39,533 bases of DNA from Actinomycetota bacterium (GTDB lineage: Bacteria > Actinomycetota > Actinomycetes > Propionibacteriales > Propionibacteriaceae): assembly GCA_020161015.1 (NCBI GenBank), contig JAIUOT010000022.1, forward strand, positions 1-39,533, written 5' to 3'. Within the stretch, counting starts at the first letter, position 1, and the number at the start of each line of letters is the position of its first letter. This document shows positions 23,005 through 32,638 of the stretch, in pieces. A model generated the notes under the pieces. That model was not told where the DNA came from. It did not search any database and saw only the letters and a list, made by a program, of their open reading frames with translations. Position numbers and translations under genes: made by a program.

Positions 23005-23015
23005 GCCTCGATGGG

Positions 23016-23088
23016 TGGAGCTAAGGGGATTCGAACCCCTGACCTTCTCATTGCGAACGAGACGCGCTACCAACTGCGCCATAGCCCC
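23016..23088 (-). tRNA. tRNA-Ala with anticodon CGC
   Basis: The 73-nt minus-strand sequence folds as a complete tRNA. The acceptor GGGGCTA pairs with TAGCTCC (one G-U), the D stem is GCGC/GCGC around AGTTGGTA, the anticodon stem TCTCG/TGAGA (one G-U) holds the loop TTCGCAA, and the T arm is AGGGG-TTCGAAT-CCCCT. The discriminator base is A. Anticodon CGC (23053-23055) reads GCG alanine codons, common in this GC-rich genome. The CCA end is not encoded. Confidence 0.96.
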
Positions 23089-23109
23089 AGGTGCTTCAAC
23101 AGCCCGACC

Positions 23110-24541: not shown

Positions 24542-25282
24542 TCAGCGCAGGTCGAGGCCCACGACCGCCCCGATCACGGTGAGGGCCGGTGGCTCCACCC
24601 CTGCGGACGCGGCCAGCGACGGCAGGTCGGACACGGTGCCGCGGATCACCCGCTGCCGGGGGCTCGCCGCCTGGGCCACCACCGCGGCCGGCGTGGACGG
24701 GTCGAGCCCGCGCTCCACCAGCCCCGCGCAGATCGCGGGGAGCTGCTTCACGCCCATCAGCACGACGATCGTCCCGCCGCCGGCAGCGAGCGCGTCCCAG
24801 TTCACGGTCGACGCGGGGTCGCCGGGCCCGACGTGCCCCGACACCACGGCGAAGCCCTGGCTGAGCCCGCGGTGGGTGAGCGGGATGCCGGCCAGTTCCG
24901 GGCCCGCCACCGCCGAGGTCACCCCGGGGATCACGCGGACCGGGACGCCGGCCTCGGCGCACGCCAGCCACTCCTCCGAGCCGCGGCCCAGCACGAACGG
25001 GTCGCCACCCTTCAGGCGCACGACCATCGCCCCGGCAGCGGCGTGGCGCACCAGCAGTGCGTTGATCTCCGCCTGCGAAGTCTGGCGTCCCCGCGGGATC
25101 TTCGCCACATCCACGAGCAGCGCCCCGGGTTTGGTCTCCTCCAGGCACGCCAGCGGTGCGAGGTGGTCGTAGAGCACCACGTCGGCCTCGCGCAGCGCCC
25201 GCAGCCCGCCGACGGTGATCAGGTCCGGGTCGCCGGGGCCACCTCCGACCAGCACCACCTCACCGGGGGTGGGCCCGCTCAC
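24542..25282 (-). CDS. cobA: Uroporphyrinogen-III C-methyltransferase (SUMT)
   Basis: A 246-residue SAM-dependent methyltransferase that converts uroporphyrinogen III to precorrin-2, the branch to siroheme and cobalamin. It has the N-terminal VVLVGGGPGDPDLITVGGLR, the segment ADVVLYDHL, VRLKGGDPFVLGRGSEE, and VIPGVTSAVAGPELAGIPLT followed by HRG. Length fits the stand-alone SUMT. It starts with GTG overlapping the upstream stop (GTGA at 25279-25282), so it is coupled to the precorrin-2 dehydrogenase gene. The pair corresponds to the two main activities of fused CysG and points to siroheme supply for sulfite or nitrite reductase. Confidence 0.93.
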   Translation of the reverse strand: MSGPTPGEVVLVGGGPGDPDLITVGGLRALREADVVLYDHLAPLACLEETKPGALLVDVAKIPRGRQTSQAEINALLVRHAAAGAMVVRLKGGDPFVLGRGSEEWLACAEAGVPVRVIPGVTSAVAGPELAGIPLTHRGLSQGFAVVSGHVGPGDPASTVNWDALAAGGGTIVVLMGVKQLPAICAGLVERGLDPSTPAAVVAQAASPRQRVIRGTVSDLPSLAASAGVEPPALTVIGAVVGLDLR

Positions 25283-25746
25283 CCGGCGTCCCCGAGCAGG
25301 TCGAGCAGCCGGTCGCGCAGCGCCCGCGCCCGCAGCGGGTCGTGGGCGGTGAGCACGCCGATCGTGGCGTCGCCGACGGTGCCGGTCGCCGGCGTCCAGG
25401 CCGAGCCGAGCCCGCCGGCGTCCGCACGGACGCAGAACGTGTGGCGGGCCTCCGCGGCCGCGGCCACGGCGGCGTTGACCTCGGGGGAGTCCGTGGCGGC
25501 CAGCACGTACCAGGCGCCGTCCAGGTCGGACGGCTCGAACGCGCGCGGCACCCAGCGGACGGTCCCGGCATCGGCCAGCGCGGCGAGGTCGGGGTGCAGC
25601 TGCGGTGCCACGACGGTCACCACCGCGCCCGCGGCCAGCAGCACAGGGACGCGACGCCGGTGGACGGCGCCACCGCCCACGGCCACGACCGGCCGTCCGG
25701 CCAGCAGCAGCCCGGCCAGGTACGCCGGTGCACCTCCTGCGCTCAT
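25279..25746 (-). CDS. Precorrin-2 dehydrogenase (siroheme synthase N-terminal type)
   Basis: A 155-residue protein with the Rossmann segment RPVVAVGGGAVHRRRVPVLL and VVTVVAPQLHPDLAAL, as in the CysG N-terminal domain and Met8p, which oxidise precorrin-2 to sirohydrochlorin with NAD+. AWYVLAATDSPEVNAAVAAA is also typical. It is short for the family (CysG N-terminal halves and SirC are usually around 200 residues) and lacks most of the dimerisation and chelatase part, so iron insertion probably needs a separate ferrochelatase. The ATG has GAGGAGG upstream. It is the first gene of a two-gene coupled unit with SUMT. Confidence 0.87.
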   Translation of the reverse strand: MSAGGAPAYLAGLLLAGRPVVAVGGGAVHRRRVPVLLAAGAVVTVVAPQLHPDLAALADAGTVRWVPRAFEPSDLDGAWYVLAATDSPEVNAAVAAAAEARHTFCVRADAGGLGSAWTPATGTVGDATIGVLTAHDPLRARALRDRLLDLLGDAG

Positions 25747-25799: not shown

Positions 25800-26255
25800 T
25801 CACGCCAGCGGGAACACCAGGCGCGTCACCGTGGTGGCCGGGTCCTCGTCCGGCTCGCTGAGGTAGAACTCGAACATCGAGCCGGTGAGTTCCACCTGCT
25901 GCTCCTCCAGCCAGGGCATCAGCTCGGCGTAGCTGTCCGAGAGCGTGTCGTACGGCCCGACATGGGTGCCGACCGCCGCCGCCATGGCCGGACGCTGCGT
26001 CACCGTGACCCCGGGGATCTCGACGACGCGGTCCACCCCGAAGCCGATCTCGACGTCCACGACGTCGGTCGGCATCCCGAAGTACTCGGCGTAGGCCGGC
26101 CCCACCAGGACCGCGCCCGCTCCCGCGGCGGCAGCGGCCACCGACGAGAAGGCGTGGTCGAACATTGTGTGCAGTTCGGCCATGGGGACGCTCGAGCGCA
26201 CCCCGGCACTCACCCACGCCTCGAGGTTCTCAAAATGCGGATCCACCCCGGCCAT
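25800..26255 (-). CDS. GyrI-like (AraC effector-binding type) small-molecule-binding protein
   Basis: A 151-residue protein resembling stand-alone GyrI-like domains, which share a fold with the effector domains of BmrR and Rob and bind small hydrophobic or cationic molecules. It contains AEYFGMPTDVVDVEIGFGVD in the middle, then VGTHVGPYDTLSDSYAELMP and a C-terminal MFEFYLSEPDEDP, a typical order for the fold. No DNA-binding domain is present. The ATG is preceded by GGAGGAGG. It lies 53 bp upstream of the siroheme pair on the same strand and could be co-transcribed, although no functional link is known. Confidence 0.82.
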   Translation of the reverse strand: MAGVDPHFENLEAWVSAGVRSSVPMAELHTMFDHAFSSVAAAAAGAGAVLVGPAYAEYFGMPTDVVDVEIGFGVDRVVEIPGVTVTQRPAMAAAVGTHVGPYDTLSDSYAELMPWLEEQQVELTGSMFEFYLSEPDEDPATTVTRLVFPLA

Positions 26256-26383
26256 GCGCCTGCCTCCTCCTCCACGGGGTCGCCCTCCACGCTAGACCGG
26301 TGACCCGGGCGCGTCGATACCACCCCGGGCACCCGCGGGCCGTACGGCGGACGCGGGGTGGCGCCACCCTGGAACCCGTCCGG

Positions 26384-26389
26384 TATCCT
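26384..26389 (+). promoter_or_regulatory. -10 element placing transcription start at a leader-peptide ATG
   Basis: TATCCT ends 6 bases before the ATG at 26396, so a start site at the usual distance would fall on the A of that ATG. No ribosome binding site precedes it, which fits a leaderless message. The -35 region (GCGCCA at 26361-26366) is weak. Confidence 0.5.
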
Positions 26390-26395
26390 TCGCGC

Positions 26396-26464
26396 ATGCA
26401 CAGCGACCGGATGCGTGGCCGAATGCCGGCCCCCTGCGGTGCCTGCTGTCGGTGTTGGTGCTGA
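26396..26464 (+). CDS. Cys-rich leader peptide, probable cysteine attenuator
   Basis: A 22-codon frame, ATG to TGA, ends in PCGACCRCWC: five Cys codons among the last nine sense codons. It lies 113 bp before the binding-protein gene of the peptide ABC operon. A -10 box suggests a leaderless transcript beginning at its ATG. In mycobacteria, leaderless upstream frames with Cys runs are known to control sulfur genes by ribosome stalling when cysteine is short. Here the last codons contain GTGCT (26458-26462), complementary to AGCAC (26566-26570), which overlaps the AGGAG ribosome binding site (26563-26567) of the downstream gene. Such pairing could hide that site until a stalled ribosome melts it. 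The pairing is only 5 bp and is inference. Confidence 0.7.
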   Translation: MHSDRMRGRMPAPCGACCRCWC

Positions 26465-26520
26465 CCGAGCCCGACGACGAGGACGCCCTCGCGGTGTCCG
26501 CCCCGCTCACCCGCCCCTCC

Positions 26521-26534
26521 CTGGCGCTCGCCAG
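26521..26534 (+). promoter_or_regulatory. Small hairpin in the leader-to-gene spacer
   Basis: CTGGCG and CGCCAG flank two bases, between the leader-peptide stop and the ribosome binding site of the binding-protein gene. It may be part of an attenuator structure; no classical terminator is visible between 26464 and 26578. Confidence 0.3.
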
Positions 26535-26577
26535 ACCCGCAGCCCCGCCCGCACCACCGCACAGGAGCACGACCGCC

Positions 26578-28140
26578 ATGACCCTGACCCGCCTCACCTC
26601 CCGCGTCGCCGCAGCGCTCGCCGTCCTCGCGCTGTCGGCCTGCGCCGCCGCCCCGTCCGCCACCACCCCCGGGGCCTCGACGTCGGCGCCCGCGACACCG
26701 CAGCGCGGCGGGACGATCACCTACGGGCGCGCCGCGGCCGTCACCTCGTTCGACCTGAACAACCAGATCACCGCCAACAACGCCTTCGCCATCGACAAGG
26801 TGTTCGAGCCGCTCGTCTCCTTCGACACGACCGGGAAGATCGTCCCCTGGCTCGCCGAGAAGTGGGACGTGAGCTCCGACCAGCTCACCTACGCCTTCAC
26901 CCTCCGCGAGGGCCTCCAGTTCTCCGACGGCACCCCCGTGACCGCCAGGGACGCGAAGTTCTCCCTGGAGCGCCACCTCGAGGTGGAGGGGCCACTGCCC
27001 CTGCAGGCGCCGATCGCGGACATCACCGCCACCGACGACCGGACGCTGACGATCTCGCTGAAGAGCGCCTACACCCCGTTCCTCTCCGAGCTGTCGGGGT
27101 TCTCCAACGGGATCTTCCCCGCCGGCTTCGGCGGCCGCAGCGAGAAGGAGTTCTTCGCCGCGCCGGTCGGCACCGGCCCGTGGGTCGTCGAGTCCTGGGA
27201 CCCCAGCGGTGACACCACCTTCCGTGCCAACCCCCACTACTGGCAGCAGGGCAAGCCGTACGCCGACACCCTGGTCTACAAGGTGGTCGCCGACGACACC
27301 CAGCGCATCCAGCAGCTCCAGGCGGGGCAGCTCTCCGGCATCGAGAACGTGGCGCCCGCCACCATCGCCTCCCTCAAGGCCGACCCGAACGTGACCGTCT
27401 CCGAGCTGGGCTCCTGGGAGGTCGAGCAGGTGTTCTTCAACACCCAGAACGCCTACTTCGCCGACCGCCACGTCCGCCGTGCGATCGCGCTCTCGCTCGA
27501 CCGGGACGCGCTCACGCAGGCCGTCACCTTCGGTGCCGCCCAGACCGTGAAGACCCTGATCCCGCCGACCATCCAGTACGCCGCCGACGTGAAGGCCCTC
27601 GACAACGACCCCGCCGCGGCGAAGGAGGAACTGGCCGCCTCCGCCTTCCCGCAGGGGTTCACCGCGACCCTGCTGATCGCCTCCGGCAACTCCGTGCGGA
27701 CGCAGGAGGCCCAGATCATCCAGGAGGCGGTCAAGCCGCTGGGGATCACCCTGAAGATCGAGTCGGTCGAGCTCAACGACTTCCGCGAGCGGTTCTTCGC
27801 CTACAAGTTCGACGCGATGATCAACTCCGGGCAGAGCGACGCGCCCGACCCCGACGGGCTGATCGCCTTCCAGACCGATCCGGAGGGGTTCAGCAAGTCG
27901 TACTGGACGCACTACACCAACGACCGGGTCACCGCCCTGGCCGCGCAGGGACGGGCCACGCCCGACGGCGAGGAGCGGGCGCGGATCTACGCGGAGATCC
28001 AGCAGATCCTGGCCGACGACGTCCCTTACATCCCGCTCTACAACACCAAGAACGTGGTGGCGTCGCTGGCGTCCGTCCACGGGCTCACGCCGCGCATCAA
28101 CGGCAGTGTCCTGTTCCAGGACGTCTGGCTCGCGCCCTAG
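26578..28140 (+). CDS. Peptide/nickel-type ABC transporter substrate-binding lipoprotein (family 5)
   Basis: A 520-residue family-5 (DppA/OppA/GsiB-like) binding protein. The signal peptide RVAAALAVLALSAC ends in a lipobox with Cys22. The mature part shows GGTITYGRAAAVTSFDLNNQ, VFEPLVSFDTTGKIVPWLAE, YAFTLREGLQFSDGTPVTA, GTGPWVVESWDPSGD and ADDVPYIPLYNTKNVVA, the usual order for the fold. The ATG has AGGAG upstream; the open frame before it overlaps the leader region. It is the first structural gene of a six-gene operon for import and cleavage of a peptide-like substrate. The Cys-rich leader suggests a cysteine-containing peptide or thiol conjugate, but nothing in the protein itself proves this. 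Confidence 0.92.
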   Translation: MTLTRLTSRVAAALAVLALSACAAAPSATTPGASTSAPATPQRGGTITYGRAAAVTSFDLNNQITANNAFAIDKVFEPLVSFDTTGKIVPWLAEKWDVSSDQLTYAFTLREGLQFSDGTPVTARDAKFSLERHLEVEGPLPLQAPIADITATDDRTLTISLKSAYTPFLSELSGFSNGIFPAGFGGRSEKEFFAAPVGTGPWVVESWDPSGDTTFRANPHYWQQGKPYADTLVYKVVADDTQRIQQLQAGQLSGIENVAPATIASLKADPNVTVSELGSWEVEQVFFNTQNAYFADRHVRRAIALSLDRDALTQAVTFGAAQTVKTLIPPTIQYAADVKALDNDPAAAKEELAASAFPQGFTATLLIASGNSVRTQEAQIIQEAVKPLGITLKIESVELNDFRERFFAYKFDAMINSGQSDAPDPDGLIAFQTDPEGFSKSYWTHYTNDRVTALAAQGRATPDGEERARIYAEIQQILADDVPYIPLYNTKNVVASLASVHGLTPRINGSVLFQDVWLAP

Positions 28141-28179: not shown

Positions 28180-29112
28180 ATGCGTTGGGTGGGGCGCTCG
28201 TTGCTCTCCGTCGTCCCGGTGGTGGTCGGCGTGGTGCTGTGCGTCTTCTTCCTGCTGCGGATCGTGCCGGGCGACCCGGCGGCGATGATCCTCGGCGAGC
28301 GCGCGACGACCGCGTCCATCGAGGCGCTGCGGCACCGCCTGGGCCTCGACCTGCCCCTGGCCCAGCAGCTGTCGGACTGGCTGGTGGGAGTGTTCACCCG
28401 CGGTGACGTCGGCACCTCGCTGGTGACGTCGCAGCCGGTGCTCGGCCTCGTCGGCTCGCGCGCCGGGCTCACCGCACTGCTCGTGCTGCTGAGCGTGGTG
28501 TTCACCGTGCTGATCGTGGTGCCCCTCGCCCTGCTCGCCGCCACCCACAAGGACGGGGTCCTGGACCACCTGGTGCGCATCGTCCCGACCGTCGGCATGG
28601 CGATGCCGGCCTTCTGGGTGGGCCTGATCCTCATCCTGCTGTTCGGCGTCCAGCTGCGCTGGCTGCCGGTGGGCGGGGTCGGGACGGGGCCGGGCGAGCC
28701 GCTGCGCAGCCTGGTGCTGCCGGCGCTGACCGTCGCGCTGGGCATGGCGCCGCCGCTGGTCCGCGCGCTCCGCGAACAACTCGTCGAGGTGCTGGACGCC
28801 GACTTCGTGGTCACGCTGCGCGCCGCCCGGCTGCCGTCCTGGCGGGTGCAGGCCCACGTGCTGCGCAACGCCGCCGTGCCGACCGTGTCGCTGCTGGGGC
28901 TCAACATCGCCTACCTGATCGGCGGCACGCTGGTGGTCGAGAAGGTCTTCGCCCTGAACGGGCTCGGGGCACTGCTGTTCTCCTCGATCAGCTCCCGGGA
29001 CTTCCCGGTCGTGCAGGGCATCGCCCTGGTGCTGGCGCTGGCCGTCGTCGGCGTCTCGCTGCTGACCGACGGGCTGGTCGCCCTGCTCGACCCGAGGGTG
29101 CGCACGGCATGA
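28180..29112 (+). CDS. Peptide ABC transporter permease (DppB type)
   Basis: A 310-residue permease of the DppB/OppB/GsiC class with six helices. The N-terminus (RSLLSVVPVVVGVVLCVFFL then LRIVPGDPA) is typical, with the conserved RxxPGDPA. The ATPase-contact loop is REQLVEVLDADFVVTLRAAR, followed by NAAVPTVSLLGLNIAYLIGG and VVEKVFALNGLG. The ATG has GGGGAG upstream and lies 39 bp after the binding-protein stop. It overlaps the next permease by 4 bp. Confidence 0.92.
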   Translation: MRWVGRSLLSVVPVVVGVVLCVFFLLRIVPGDPAAMILGERATTASIEALRHRLGLDLPLAQQLSDWLVGVFTRGDVGTSLVTSQPVLGLVGSRAGLTALLVLLSVVFTVLIVVPLALLAATHKDGVLDHLVRIVPTVGMAMPAFWVGLILILLFGVQLRWLPVGGVGTGPGEPLRSLVLPALTVALGMAPPLVRALREQLVEVLDADFVVTLRAARLPSWRVQAHVLRNAAVPTVSLLGLNIAYLIGGTLVVEKVFALNGLGALLFSSISSRDFPVVQGIALVLALAVVGVSLLTDGLVALLDPRVRTA

Positions 29113-29960
29113 GCACCACGACCGCTGCCGTCCGCCCGTCCGTGCGGTGGCTGCGCCGCGCCCGCCGGACGCCTGCCCTCGTCGCGGGGACGGCGATCCT
29201 CGTGGTGGTGGGCGTGGTGGCGGTCCTCGCCCCGGTGATCGCGCCGTACGACCCCGCGTCCCAGGACCTCGGCAACGGGCTGGCCCCGCCGTCGGCCGCC
29301 CACTGGTTCGGCACCGACCAGCTCGGCCGCGACATCCTCTCGCGGGTGATGGCCGCGGCGGCCACCGACCTGCGGATCGCCGTCCTCGCCGCGCTGGTGC
29401 CGCTCGTTGTCGGGGTCACGATCGGGCTGGTCAGCGGCTACGTGGGCGGCTGGGGCGACTGGCTGATCGGGCGCGTGGTCGACACCTTCGTCGCCTTCCC
29501 GTTCTACGTGCTCGTGATCACGGTGGTGTTCGCCGCCGGTGCGGGGGAGCGGGGCATCTACCTGGCCTACGCCCTCGTGGGCTGGATCACCTACGCCCGC
29601 GTGATCCGCGCACGCACCCGCACGCTGTGCCGCGAGGGGTGGGTCCAGGCCGCCCGCGGCGGCGGGCTGTCGCACGGGCGCGTGCTCTTCGGCCACCTGC
29701 TGCCCAACGTGGCGCCGCTGGCCGTGGTGCTGCTGATGACCGAGATCCTGCTGATCATGGTGGCCGTGGTGACCCTGGGCTACCTCGGCCTCGGCGTCCA
29801 GCCGCCCACGCCCGACTGGGGGACGATGATCAGCGACGGGCAGCTCTTCCTGACCACGCGCTGGTGGGTGCCGACCCTGCCCGGGCTGGCGGTGGTGCTC
29901 ACCGGGGTCGGGCTGTCGCTCACCGGGGACGGCCTGGCCGACGTGTGGAGGCTGCGATGA
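29109..29960 (+). CDS. Peptide ABC transporter permease (DppC type)
   Basis: A 283-residue DppC/OppC-class permease. Marks are the first helix GTAILVVVGVVAVLAPVIAP, HWFGTDQLGRDILSRVM (the GTDxxGRDxxSR block), VVDTFVAFPFYVLVI, and the ATPase-contact loop CREGWVQAARGGGLSHGRVL with LPNVAPL. The C-terminal block GYLGLGVQPPTPDWGTMI is standard. The ATG overlaps the previous stop (ATGA at 29109-29112), and its own stop overlaps the following ATPase start. This tight packing implies coupled synthesis of the transporter subunits. Confidence 0.92.
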   Translation: MSTTTAAVRPSVRWLRRARRTPALVAGTAILVVVGVVAVLAPVIAPYDPASQDLGNGLAPPSAAHWFGTDQLGRDILSRVMAAAATDLRIAVLAALVPLVVGVTIGLVSGYVGGWGDWLIGRVVDTFVAFPFYVLVITVVFAAGAGERGIYLAYALVGWITYARVIRARTRTLCREGWVQAARGGGLSHGRVLFGHLLPNVAPLAVVLLMTEILLIMVAVVTLGYLGLGVQPPTPDWGTMISDGQLFLTTRWWVPTLPGLAVVLTGVGLSLTGDGLADVWRLR

Positions 29961-30691
29961 GGATCGAGGGCCTGCGCGTCGCGGGCGAGACCGAGTTGCT
30001 GCACGGCGTGAGCCTGGCCGTCGGAGCGGGCGAGGCCGTCGGGCTGGTGGGGGAGTCCGGCTCGGGCAAGAGCCTCACGCTGCGCGCGGTGATGGGCCTG
30101 CTGCCCCGCGGCCTGCGCGTGACCGGGGGGACGGTGGAGGTGGACGGCCGGGCCGCGATGATCTTCCAGGACCCGCTCACCTTCCTCGACCCGCTGGTGC
30201 GGGTCGGCGACCAGGTCGCAGAGGTGTGCCGGGTGGTCGCCGGCCTCTCCCGGCGGGCGTCCCGCGTCCGGGCGCTCGAACTGTTCGCCGACGTCCGGCT
30301 GGACGACCGCGCGGTGCTCGCCCGCCGCTACCCCCACCAGCTCTCCGGAGGGCAGCGCCAGCGCGTCCTGCTCGCCCTTGCCCTGGCGCAGGAGCCCGAC
30401 CTGCTGTTGTGCGACGAGCCCACCACGGCCCTCGACGTCACCGTGCAGCGGGAGGTGCTCGACCTGCTCGCGTCGCTGCGCGCCGAGCGGGGGCTGTCGC
30501 TGGTGTTCGTGAGCCACGACCTCGCCGTGGTCGCCCAGCTGTGCGACCGGGTGGTGGTGCTGCGCGACGGCGAGGTGGTCGAGGCGGGCGCCACGCGGGA
30601 CGTGGTGGCCCGGCCGCACCACCCCTACACCCGTCGCCTGCTGGACGCCGTCCTCCCCCTCCCCGCGCTCGCCGGGGGTCGCGATGGCTGA
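29957..30691 (+). CDS. Peptide ABC transporter ATPase (DppD type)
   Basis: A 244-residue ATPase. Walker A is GESGSGKS (residues 32-39), the Q-loop is MIFQDPLTFLDPL, the signature is LSGGQRQRVLLALAL, Walker B is LLLCDEPTTALDVTVQ and the switch His is in FVSHDLAV. The C-terminal HHPYTRRLLDAV is the opening of the oligopeptide-transporter extension, which here is very short and lacks the usual Cys-rich iron-sulfur segment of DppD proteins. The total is shorter than the usual 320 or so residues. The ATG overlaps the permease stop by 4 bp; the open frame further upstream is antisense-like noise in another gene. Confidence 0.9.
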   Translation: MRIEGLRVAGETELLHGVSLAVGAGEAVGLVGESGSGKSLTLRAVMGLLPRGLRVTGGTVEVDGRAAMIFQDPLTFLDPLVRVGDQVAEVCRVVAGLSRRASRVRALELFADVRLDDRAVLARRYPHQLSGGQRQRVLLALALAQEPDLLLCDEPTTALDVTVQREVLDLLASLRAERGLSLVFVSHDLAVVAQLCDRVVVLRDGEVVEAGATRDVVARPHHPYTRRLLDAVLPLPALAGGRDG

Positions 30692-31481
30692 CGGGCTGGA
30701 ACTCACCGGGGTGAGCGTGGCCTACGCCGGCCGGCGGGTCGTCGACGATGTGTCGCTGCAGGTGCGCCCCGGGACCATCGTCGGGCTGGTCGGGGAGTCC
30801 GGCTCGGGGAAGACCACGCTGGCGCGCGCCGTGGTCGGCACGGTCGGGCTCGCCGGGGGCACCGTGCACCTCGACGGGACGCCGCTCGCCCGTCGCCGGA
30901 GCCGGACGGAGCGTCGGGCCGTCCAGCTGGTGCAGCAGGACCCGTACGCCTCGCTGAACCCGCTGCTCACCGTCGGCCGCGTGCTCGACGAACTGCTTCG
31001 CGTCCACCGGCTCGCGGAACGGCGCATCGCCTCCGACACCGCCGGCGCGCCCGACGCGGGGGCGTGGCGGCGGGCCCGCTGCGCGGAGCTGATGGGGCTG
31101 GTGGGGCTCGAGGCGGACACGCTCGGCCGCTACCCGCGCCAGCTGTCCGGCGGCCAGCGGCAGCGGGTGGCGATCGCCCGGGCGCTGGCCGTCGAGCCGC
31201 GCATCCTGGTGGCCGACGAGCCCACCAGCGCCCTCGACGTCACCGTGCAGCGCACCGTCCTGGACGTCCTGGTGGGGCTCTCGGCGCGGGTCGGGCTGGG
31301 CGTGCTTCTGATCTCGCACGACCTGTCGGTGATCCACGCCGCCTGCGATGACGTCGCCGTCCTGCGCGAGGGCCGGATCGTCGAGCACGCGCCCGCGGCG
31401 CGGTTCTTCACCCATCCGTCCGACCCGTACAGCCGCCGCCTGCTGCAGGCGGTGCCCCGGCTGCCGGAGCGCGCGCCGTGA
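30684..31481 (+). CDS. Peptide ABC transporter ATPase (DppF type)
   Basis: A 265-residue ATPase that pairs with the previous gene. Walker A is GESGSGKTT (residues 37-45), the Q-loop VQLVQQDPYASLNPLLTVGR, the signature LSGGQRQRVAIARALAV, Walker B ILVADEPTSALDVTVQ, and LISHDLSV carries the switch His. SDPYSRRLLQAVPRLP is the short C-terminal extension. Like its partner it lacks the longer Cys-bearing tail often seen in DppF. It overlaps the previous gene by 8 bp and the next by 4 bp. Confidence 0.91.
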   Translation: MADGLELTGVSVAYAGRRVVDDVSLQVRPGTIVGLVGESGSGKTTLARAVVGTVGLAGGTVHLDGTPLARRRSRTERRAVQLVQQDPYASLNPLLTVGRVLDELLRVHRLAERRIASDTAGAPDAGAWRRARCAELMGLVGLEADTLGRYPRQLSGGQRQRVAIARALAVEPRILVADEPTSALDVTVQRTVLDVLVGLSARVGLGVLLISHDLSVIHAACDDVAVLREGRIVEHAPAARFFTHPSDPYSRRLLQAVPRLPERAP

Positions 31482-32638
31482 ACGTGGCCGAACTGCCGGC
31501 CGTCGGTGAGCCCGTCGGTGGTCTCGTCGGAGGCCTGGTGCTGGGCGCGGACGGCGTCTTCCGCCCGGGCGTGGTGCGGATCGACGGCCCGGTGTCCGCC
31601 GCGCCGGACGCCGCCGCGTCCCTGCCGGTGGTCGACGTGACCGGGGCCTGGGTGACCCCCGGCTTCGTCGACGCGCACACCCACCTGTCGTGGAGCGACT
31701 TCGACCACCCCGACACCGGGCTGGCCGAGCGGGCCGCCGCAACCTCCCGGAACCGGTTGGCGACGCTCGCCGCCGGGGTGACCACCGCGCGGGACGCCGG
31801 CGGCTACGACCCCGCGCTCGCCCGGCTCGTCGATGGCGAACCCGGACCGCGGGTCGTCCCCTCGATCGACATCATCGGCCCCGGGGACGCGCGCGGCGCC
31901 GCGTACCTCCGCCGGCGGGTGGCCGCCCTGGCCGGGGCCGGCGCCGCGTGGATCAAGGTCGCGGCGACCGGTGGCGTCGGCGCAGGCACCGCGCAGCGCG
32001 AGCCGGTGTTCGACCGCGCCGAGTTCGCGGCGATCACGGGGGAGGCCGCGCGGGCCGGGCTGCCGGTGATGGTGCACGCGTGGGGCGGGCCGGCGATCGA
32101 CTGGGCGGTCGAGGACGGCGTGGCGAGCATCGAGCACGCCGTCCACCTCACCGCGGCGCAGGCGCGTCGCGCCGCCGCGGCGGGGACCTTCGTGGTGCCG
32201 ACCGTGTGGATCTACGCCGACGTGCTGCGGCTCGCCCTCGCCGGGAAGCTCCCGGCGACGCTGGTGCCCGCGGCGCGGACGGCGGTCGCCGCCCACCCGC
32301 GCGCGGTCCGCCACTGCCTCGAGGAGGGTGTCCCGCTGGCCATGGGCACGGACGCCGGGCTGCCCACGCAGCACGGGCGCAACCTGAACGAGGTGGCCGC
32401 CCTCGTCGGGGCGGGGGTGCCGGTGGACGTGGCGCTGCGCGCTGCCACCTACGGCGGCGCTCGTCTCGTCGATCCGGGGGCGGGGGTGCCGCTGGCGCCC
32501 GGCGCGCGCGCGGACGTCGTGGTCTTCGACCGCGACCCCACCGACGTCGCGACGCTGCGCGATCCCGGTGCCGTGTGCCTGGTGCTCCGGGACGGGCGGG
32601 TCGCCCACCGGCGCGCTAGTCCCGACGCTTCGTCGTGA
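31478..32638 (+). CDS. Metal-dependent amidohydrolase, probable dipeptidase
   Basis: A 386-residue amidohydrolase-superfamily enzyme similar to imidazolonepropionase-like proteins and the Xaa-Pro / Xaa-Lys carboxypeptidase group. Metal-site candidates are His67 and His69 (VDAHTHL), Lys160 (WIKVAATGG, position of the carboxylated lysine), His200 (VMVHAWGG), His220 (SIEHAVHL) and Asp292 (MGTDAG). No signal peptide is seen, so it acts in the cytoplasm. It starts with GTG overlapping the ATPase stop (GTGA), making it the last gene of the peptide-import operon and implying that it cleaves the imported compound. The natural substrate is unknown; the Cys-rich leader points to a Cys-containing dipeptide or N-acyl-cysteine-like amide. 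Confidence 0.85.
   Translation: MNVAELPAVGEPVGGLVGGLVLGADGVFRPGVVRIDGPVSAAPDAAASLPVVDVTGAWVTPGFVDAHTHLSWSDFDHPDTGLAERAAATSRNRLATLAAGVTTARDAGGYDPALARLVDGEPGPRVVPSIDIIGPGDARGAAYLRRRVAALAGAGAAWIKVAATGGVGAGTAQREPVFDRAEFAAITGEAARAGLPVMVHAWGGPAIDWAVEDGVASIEHAVHLTAAQARRAAAAGTFVVPTVWIYADVLRLALAGKLPATLVPAARTAVAAHPRAVRHCLEEGVPLAMGTDAGLPTQHGRNLNEVAALVGAGVPVDVALRAATYGGARLVDPGAGVPLAPGARADVVVFDRDPTDVATLRDPGAVCLVLRDGRVAHRRASPDASS

What the first reader, a model, noticed from the sequence alone, without database searches (positions are those of the whole stretch)
26384..26577. Leaderless Cys-rich leader peptide in front of a peptide ABC importer
Seen: a 22-codon frame ends in PCGACCRCWC with five Cys codons; its ATG sits where TATCCT (26384-26389) would start transcription; no ribosome binding site precedes it. 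Known: leaderless poly-Cys upstream frames regulate sulfur genes in mycobacteria by attenuation. Inference: cysteine shortage stalls ribosomes on the Cys run and frees the downstream AGGAG. GTGCT (26458-26462) can pair with AGCAC (26566-26570) next to that site. A peptide importer as target would extend such control beyond the usual cysteine biosynthesis genes.
Basis: partly seen in the sequence, partly recalled or inferred. Interest (0 to 1): 0.75.

Follow-up and report, generated by a model that had tools for sequence, protein, structure and literature searches.

The report
Cysteine-sensing leader before peptide importer
A tiny cysteine-rich reading frame at the very start of a peptide-importer message is conserved in related bacteria and probably lets the cell turn the importer up when cysteine runs short, a known trick for cysteine-making genes found here in front of uptake genes.

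Summary
Observation confirmed: window 26396-26464 encodes MHSDRMRGRMPAPCGACCRCWC, 6 nt after TATCCT, without a Shine-Dalgarno (SD) site. 0 of 20000 dinucleotide shuffles give a comparable frame. It precedes the orthologous substrate-binding gene in 5 of 7 genomes of the genus with readable upstream DNA, its own included; the two most diverged copies have lost it. In the genus, Cys-ended short frames also precede the sulfite-reductase/cysH operon (7 of 7 readable by eye, 3 of 7 by the strict scan). A second, unrelated oligopeptide importer carries one in 7 of 9 genomes of the family. So a Cys-sensing leader on peptide importers is well supported by sequence. The C-rich, G-poor spacer (top 0.2% of local windows) fits Rho-dependent control at least as well. 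The kind is known (mycobacterial polycysteine leaders; Cys leaders predicted in Propionibacterium acnes in 2005); the importer target was not met in the literature searches made. Nothing was tested experimentally.

The parts
26384..26389 (+). -10 hexamer TATCCT, 6 nt before the leader ATG
   Evidence: Read; TATCCT or TATTCT at 6-7 nt in the 5 orthologs with a leader, and TATCCT also in the 2 without. A loose sigma-70 consensus scan found no two-hexamer promoter. Start site not mapped.
26396..26464 (+). Leaderless 22-codon reading frame MHSDRMRGRMPAPCGACCRCWC, stop TGA
   Evidence: conserved in 5 of 7 orthologs; 0 of 20000 shuffles
26435..26461 (+). Cys-codon run (5 Cys in the last 9 codons), proposed stall site
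   Evidence: 18 pooled leaders use TGT in 47 of 68 Cys codons versus 6 of 52 in window genes; this leader alone 2 of 5
26449..26468 (+). Possible small hairpin over the last Cys codons and stop (TCGGT/ACCGA)
   Evidence: p=0.04 in the window, 0.058 combined over 5 orthologs; weak
26465..26577 (+). C-rich, G-poor untranslated spacer (53% C, 27% G); candidate Rho-loading region
   Evidence: C>G skew in the top 0.2% of background windows
26521..26534 (+). Spacer hairpin CTGGCG-CT-CGCCAG without a U-run; role unknown
   Evidence: no intrinsic terminator in 26250-26620; the spacer as a whole folds no better than shuffles (p=0.94)
26563..26567 (+). Shine-Dalgarno AGGAG of the first structural gene
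26578..28140 (+). Substrate-binding lipoprotein, SBP_bac_5 family (peptide/nickel/glutathione type; ligand unknown)
   Evidence: Pfam PF00496 E=5.9e-91; below the cut-off of each NCBIfam model listed
28180..29112 (+). ABC permease 1 (Opp/Dpp/Nik type)
29109..29960 (+). ABC permease 2 (Opp/Dpp/Nik type)
29957..30691 (+). ABC ATP-binding protein 1
   Evidence: Pfam PF00005
30684..31481 (+). ABC ATP-binding protein 2
31478..32638 (+). Amidohydrolase related to Xaa-Pro dipeptidase, Cc2672 carboxypeptidase and ochratoxinase
   Evidence: (below cut-off); linked to the importer genes in 6 of 6 same-genus loci searched

Best explanation
The 22-codon frame is a leaderless leader-peptide gene whose translation senses cysteinyl-tRNA supply. 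The mRNA starts at its ATG; a ribosome that reaches the Cys codons next to the stop moves on quickly when cysteine is plentiful and stalls when it is scarce; stalling raises expression of the importer-amidohydrolase operon, so that peptides or other organic sulfur compounds are taken up. The output step is not settled. For this locus I think relief of Rho-dependent termination in the C-rich spacer somewhat more likely than release of a sequestered SD; the first two rivals below are these two versions. Shown by sequence: the frame, its promoter-like spacing, its conservation, its recurrence before a second importer and before the sulfite-reductase operon. Inferred: transcription start, translation, stalling, the cysteine signal, direction of control and the output step.
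For: Conserved in 5 of 7 orthologs with readable upstream DNA; leader identity 0.90 against 0.59 for promoter-upstream DNA in the window-G014 pair, and higher than the upstream DNA in 10 of 10 pairs. 0 of 20000 shuffles. Cys-ended short frames before sulfite reductase in the genus, the window's own genome included, with PAPS_reduct genes following. A second importer family, about 30% identical in its binding protein, has leaders with runs such as CCC, CCCCC and CCCSC in 7 of 9 genomes across three genera, while the peptides otherwise diverge. The importer ortholog and sulfite reductase each occur in 8 of 30 genomes and together in 7 (Fisher p=3e-5; phylogeny not controlled). Other binding-protein loci lack such a leader: of 22 further same-genus loci with upstream DNA (L008, L010-L030), 21 have none and the other, L020, is the second importer; 4 of 4 paralogs in the window's genome have none.
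Against: 2 of 7 orthologs lack a working leader: G005 has no start or stop codon at the aligned places, G008 reads from its GTG out of frame with the Cys codons. The leader is less conserved than the spacer in 2 of 10 pairs (G019 with G020 and G013). Of 74 more distant relatives of the binding protein (L037-L110 of the best 80 kept), none has a like leader in up to 480 nt before the match; three Paenibacillus loci have Cys-containing short frames by a laxer rule. The second importer has one Cys in G130, no leader in G109, and none in 2 of 2 homologs outside the family. The importer's ligand is unknown, and nothing shows that it carries sulfur. No leader of 9 tested matched an NCBIfam model. 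No expression data.
Confidence: 0.75

Rival explanations
1. Version of the best explanation: translational attenuation, as first proposed and as reported for mycobacterial Cys leaders. A structure hides the SD of the binding-protein gene and a ribosome stalled on the Cys codons opens it.
For: In ortholog G014 all predicted SD pairing is with the leader and SD openness rises from 0.25 to 0.57-0.65 with a ribosome on its last three Cys codons; G020 rises from 0.35 to 0.43-0.52. The sulfite-reductase leaders have a consensus hairpin that includes the SD; their spacers fold better than shuffles in 3 of 6 (combined p=0.0004). PMC13236596 says M. smegmatis Cys genes are under translation attenuation (passages).
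Against: In the window SD openness does not change (0.52-0.53) and the proposed pairing is not favoured. G013 stays or closes (0.43 to 0.27-0.44), G019 hardly opens (0.49 to 0.48-0.57), 7 of 7 second-importer leaders do not respond, and of the 6 sulfite-reductase leaders none opens by more than 0.07 and two close. Leader-tail:SD duplex is not better than shuffles in any group (combined p 0.42, 0.62, 0.88). The consensus fold of the 7 window-type regions has no helix reaching the SD.
Confidence: 0.35
2. Version of the best explanation: Rho-dependent attenuation. After normal release at the stop codon, Rho loads on the C-rich spacer and ends transcription before the binding-protein gene; a ribosome held on the Cys codons beside the stop blocks loading, as in the E. 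coli tna operon.
For: Spacer C>G skew 0.33, top 0.2% of 15762 overlapping background windows; G014 top 0.1%, G013 0.4%, G019 2.3%. Skew higher than in 18 other binding-protein upstream regions (5 window-type spacers p=0.005; 12 of both importers p=0.002). No intrinsic terminator. Rho was proposed for Cys leaders by Seliverstov 2005 (PMC1262725, passages).
Against: Skew is a weak predictor of Rho loading. G020 is unremarkable (top 18%) and two second-importer spacers show none (G036, G076). 1 of 18 controls exceeds the window's skew and 2 of 18 reach 0.24; control start codons were guessed, and the 18 are those of the 23 loci L008-L030 left after dropping L009, L018, L020, L023 and L027. Most of the spacer lies downstream of where a stalled ribosome would sit.
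Confidence: 0.42
3. The conserved element is an RNA structure or protein site and the reading frame is incidental.
For: G005 and G008 keep the -10 and a CCGGTG stretch at the place of the Cys codons although the frame is broken.
Against: The Cys run persists in otherwise changed peptides across genera in the second importer and with a synonymous Cys change between window and G014. No Rfam match other than tRNA reached its gathering score in 7 loci.
Confidence: 0.08
4. Chance, or the end of an unrelated longer frame.
For: The frame is open upstream to a TTG at 26165.
Against: 0 of 20000 shuffles, 5 of 7 orthologs.
Confidence: 0.02

Closest known systems
Polycysteine-encoding leaderless short ORFs of mycobacteria (Canestrari et al. 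2020, doi 10.1111/mmi.14498; paper not held, known here from citing papers and recall)
   Same: Leaderless short frame with Cys run ahead of a sulfur-related operon; one candidate sits before nirA/Msmeg_4527 (PMC4633059, passages), comparable with the sulfite-reductase leaders found here
   Different: Target is a peptide-type ABC importer; SD sequestration is not predicted in the window. Peptides were not compared with the mycobacterial ones
Candidate Cys leader peptides before cys operons of Mycobacterium and Propionibacterium acnes and cbs of Bifidobacterium longum (Seliverstov et al. 2005, PMC1262725, passages read)
   Same: P. acnes is of the same bacterial family (recalled); Cys codons near the stop; no terminator; Rho suggested
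   Different: Targets there are biosynthetic; no importer mentioned in the passages read
E. coli tnaC (recalled; the tna operon is also named in PMC1262725)
   Same: Ribosome held at the end of a leader may keep Rho from loading
   Different: tnaC responds to free tryptophan and its nascent peptide (recalled); here scarcity of charged tRNA is inferred

Membership tests
Polycysteine leaderless attenuators | Start codon placed at transcription start, no SD | tested here: inconclusive
   Sequence fits: TATCCT 6 nt before ATG, no SD; spacing 6-7 nt in 5 of 7. Start not mapped.
Polycysteine leaderless attenuators | Run of Cys codons close to the stop | tested here: met
   5 Cys in the last 9 codons; Cys run retained in 5 of 7 orthologs
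Polycysteine leaderless attenuators | Upstream of a cysteine or sulfur gene | tested here: inconclusive
   Importer ligand unknown; co-occurs with sulfite reductase
Polycysteine leaderless attenuators | mRNA structure hides the downstream SD and is opened by stalled ribosomes | tested here: inconclusive
   Not seen in the window by folding; seen in G014 and weakly in G020. Folding in silico cannot decide.
Polycysteine leaderless attenuators | Expression responds to cysteine | not testable with these tools
   Needs an experiment
Classical transcription attenuator with intrinsic terminator | GC-rich hairpin followed by a U-run before the gene | tested here: not met
   0 found in 26250-26620
T-box, S-box or other described riboswitch | Match to a covariance model | tested here: not met
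   No match other than tRNA at gathering score in 7 loci of the genus or in 11 of the 74 distant loci

The most novel reading that the evidence does not exclude
In Propionibacteriaceae a set of leaderless Cys leaders forms one ribosome-read regulon that joins sulfate reduction with scavenging of peptides. It was recruited to two unrelated peptide importers, works at the importers by Rho-dependent termination rather than SD release, and is sharpened by use of the less common Cys codon TGT.
Probability: 0.3. Interest if true: 0.65.

Novelty: new member of a known kind. Interest (0 to 1): 0.5.

Why it matters
It carries Cys-sensing leaders from making cysteine to importing it. It also gives a way to guess substrates: a poly-Cys leader in front of an uncharacterised SBP_bac_5 importer predicts that it brings in cysteine-containing peptides or other organic sulfur. 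Genomes G015 and G018 (95% and 100% complete) have the second importer's leader but no sulfite reductase hit, which suggests that such leaders also serve cells that must scavenge cysteine.

Tried and rejected
SD release through GTGCT:AGCAC: folded with and without a ribosome on each Cys codon, and against shuffles; no support in the window. Consensus fold of the window-type leaders: weak, -5.5 kcal/mol, no helix reaching the SD; MAFFT did not align the spacer well and misplaced the -10 of some rows. Intrinsic terminator: none. Known riboswitch: none. Family match of the leaders: none in NCBIfam for 9 peptides. Distant relatives of the binding protein: none with a like leader; the three Paenibacillus frames found by the laxer rule were set aside as long (44 codons). 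Literature; of these I saw the listings, with 20 of 99, 20 of 43, 15 of 21, 15 of 217, 20 of 90, 4 of 4, 12 of 20 and 11 of 11 papers listed (title and start of abstract), and none showed a Cys leader before a peptide importer. The key paper was not held and the library is open-licence only.

Full report
What is there. At 26396-26464 a 22-codon frame, MHSDRMRGRMPAPCGACCRCWC, starts 6 nt after TATCCT and has no SD. 113 nt later the gene for an SBP_bac_5 lipoprotein starts at 26578 behind AGGAG; two permeases, two ATPases and an amidohydrolase follow, overlapping or nearly so. The binding protein resembles nickel, glutathione and dipeptide types but passes no cut-off among the models listed, and its profile matches many solved peptide, opine, haem and nickel binders (the 60 best shown), so 'peptide importer' is a family label, not a proven function. 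The amidohydrolase resembles dipeptidases and carboxypeptidases, which fits use of imported peptides or amides.

Chance. 0 of 20000 dinucleotide shuffles contain a leaderless-spaced frame with 3 or more Cys in 8 codons. The same rule applied to all 146 loci then held (1.40 Mb, with overlaps) found such frames before the window-type importer, the second importer and sulfite reductase, plus background in 7 loci above 55% GC (5 distinct cases) and in 6 of 30 loci at or below 55% GC; the 13 background loci come from outside the family. A later scan of 31 loci (L156-L186) found only 5 leaders of the second importer.

Conservation. In one search, 30 genus genomes gave 7 full-length orthologs at 74-100% identity and one fragment (G021) without upstream DNA; the other listed matches were about 23-38% identical. 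Of the 7, five have the leader: the window, G014 (..RCCACCRCWL), G020 and G013 (..VGCCCC) and G019 (..RCAACCRCWR), with TATCCT or TATTCT at 6-7 nt. Leader DNA is more conserved than DNA before the promoter in 10 of 10 pairs, e.g. 0.90 against 0.59, and more than the spacer in 8 of 10. G005 and G008, the most diverged, keep the -10 but not a working frame. Outside the genus none of 74 relatives of the binding protein has a like leader in up to 480 nt before the match (two loci had only 55 and 195 nt), nor do four more distant same-family hits.

Recurrence. Sulfite reductase (PF01077) occurs in 8 of 30 genus genomes. In the 7 with readable upstream DNA a short frame with Cys near its stop precedes it..SMCCAC in G005, G008, G019 and G014..SMCCAS in the window's own genome..SMCCAY in G013, and a weaker ..MCRAL in G021. 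Three of the 7 pass the strict scan; G014 misses by spacing (10 nt), the others by Cys number. PAPS_reduct genes (cysH/cysD type) lie next to it. A second importer, about 30% identical in its binding protein and carrying the oligopeptide ATPase domain oligo_HPY, was found because its leader came up in the scan (L020). Among 198 family genomes 9 have this binding protein at E below 1e-110; 7 of 9 have a leaderless Cys leader by the strict rule, with runs CCC, CCCCC, CCCSC or CCRCIC, in three genera. G130 has a leaderless frame with one Cys and G109 has none. Two homologs outside the family, from 394 genomes of the class, have none.

Codon choice. The 18 leaders use TGT for 47 of 68 Cys codons (window type 15 of 24, second importer 23 of 28, sulfite reductase 9 of 16); 22 window genes use it for 6 of 52. 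The leaders are related, so the p value (9e-11) is overstated; the window leader alone has 2 of 5; and in G036, a lower-GC genome, importer genes themselves use TGT in 5 of 9.

Mechanism. A stall on Cys codons when Cys-tRNA is short is the reading that best explains a conserved Cys run beside the stop; it is inferred from the mycobacterial case (PMC4633059 and PMC9031893 passages; the primary paper 10.1111/mmi.14498 is not held). How the stall reaches the next gene is open. The sulfite-reductase leaders carry an SD-sequestering hairpin in the consensus fold, but a modelled stalled ribosome does not open it in any of 6 and closes it further in two. The importer spacers stand out by C over G: window 0.33, top 0.2% of background; 5 window-type spacers against 18 other binding-protein upstream regions p=0.005, 12 of both importer types p=0.002, with 1 of 18 controls above the window. 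That favours, without proving, Rho-dependent termination, as proposed for Cys leaders in 2005 (PMC1262725 passages).

Known or new. Cys leaders are a known kind, predicted even in P. acnes. A peptide importer as target was not seen in the listings of eight literature searches, with the caveat that the main paper could not be read. I file it as a new member of a known kind with a new type of target.

Noticed in passing
G000 contig C4:21517-21689 (L138 13517-13689): Leader MVEPAFVVSALGNNPAGSMCCAS before the sulfite-reductase/cysH operon of the window's own genome, with TGACGCGCCCG at the stop codon in 7 of 7 relatives aligned; by eye it could be a three-hairpin translational attenuator, but modelled stalling did not open the SD.
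   Followed up: partly
L147-L155, e.g. L147 upstream of 1501: Second, unrelated oligopeptide importer with Cys leaders in 7 of 9 genomes of the family, also in two genomes (G015, G018) with no sulfite reductase hit.
   Followed up: yes
18 leaders: Cys leaders prefer TGT (47 of 68) where window genes prefer TGC (6 of 52 TGT); not so clear in G036 (5 of 9 in importer genes).
   Followed up: partly
window 24542-25746: Uroporphyrinogen-III methyltransferase and a CysG N-terminal-like gene (siroheme, used by sulfite reductase) lie just upstream, on the other strand. By tblastn in 6 same-genus loci they are found beside the importer only in G014 (L031); L034 and L035 hold only about 1 kb upstream.
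   Followed up: partly
L032 10856-11947: Extra gene between ATPase and amidohydrolase in G020; its sequence looks like a class V aminotransferase (by eye, no search run).
   Followed up: no
window 23012-23089: tRNA-Ala(CGC) about 3.3 kb upstream; a tRNA-Ala(CGC) also lies upstream of the importer in L005, L006, L007 and L031.
   Followed up: no
L007 and L006 upstream regions: In G005 and G008 a broken leader frame runs on to end at the ATGA of the binding-protein start; may be translational coupling or decay.
   Followed up: no
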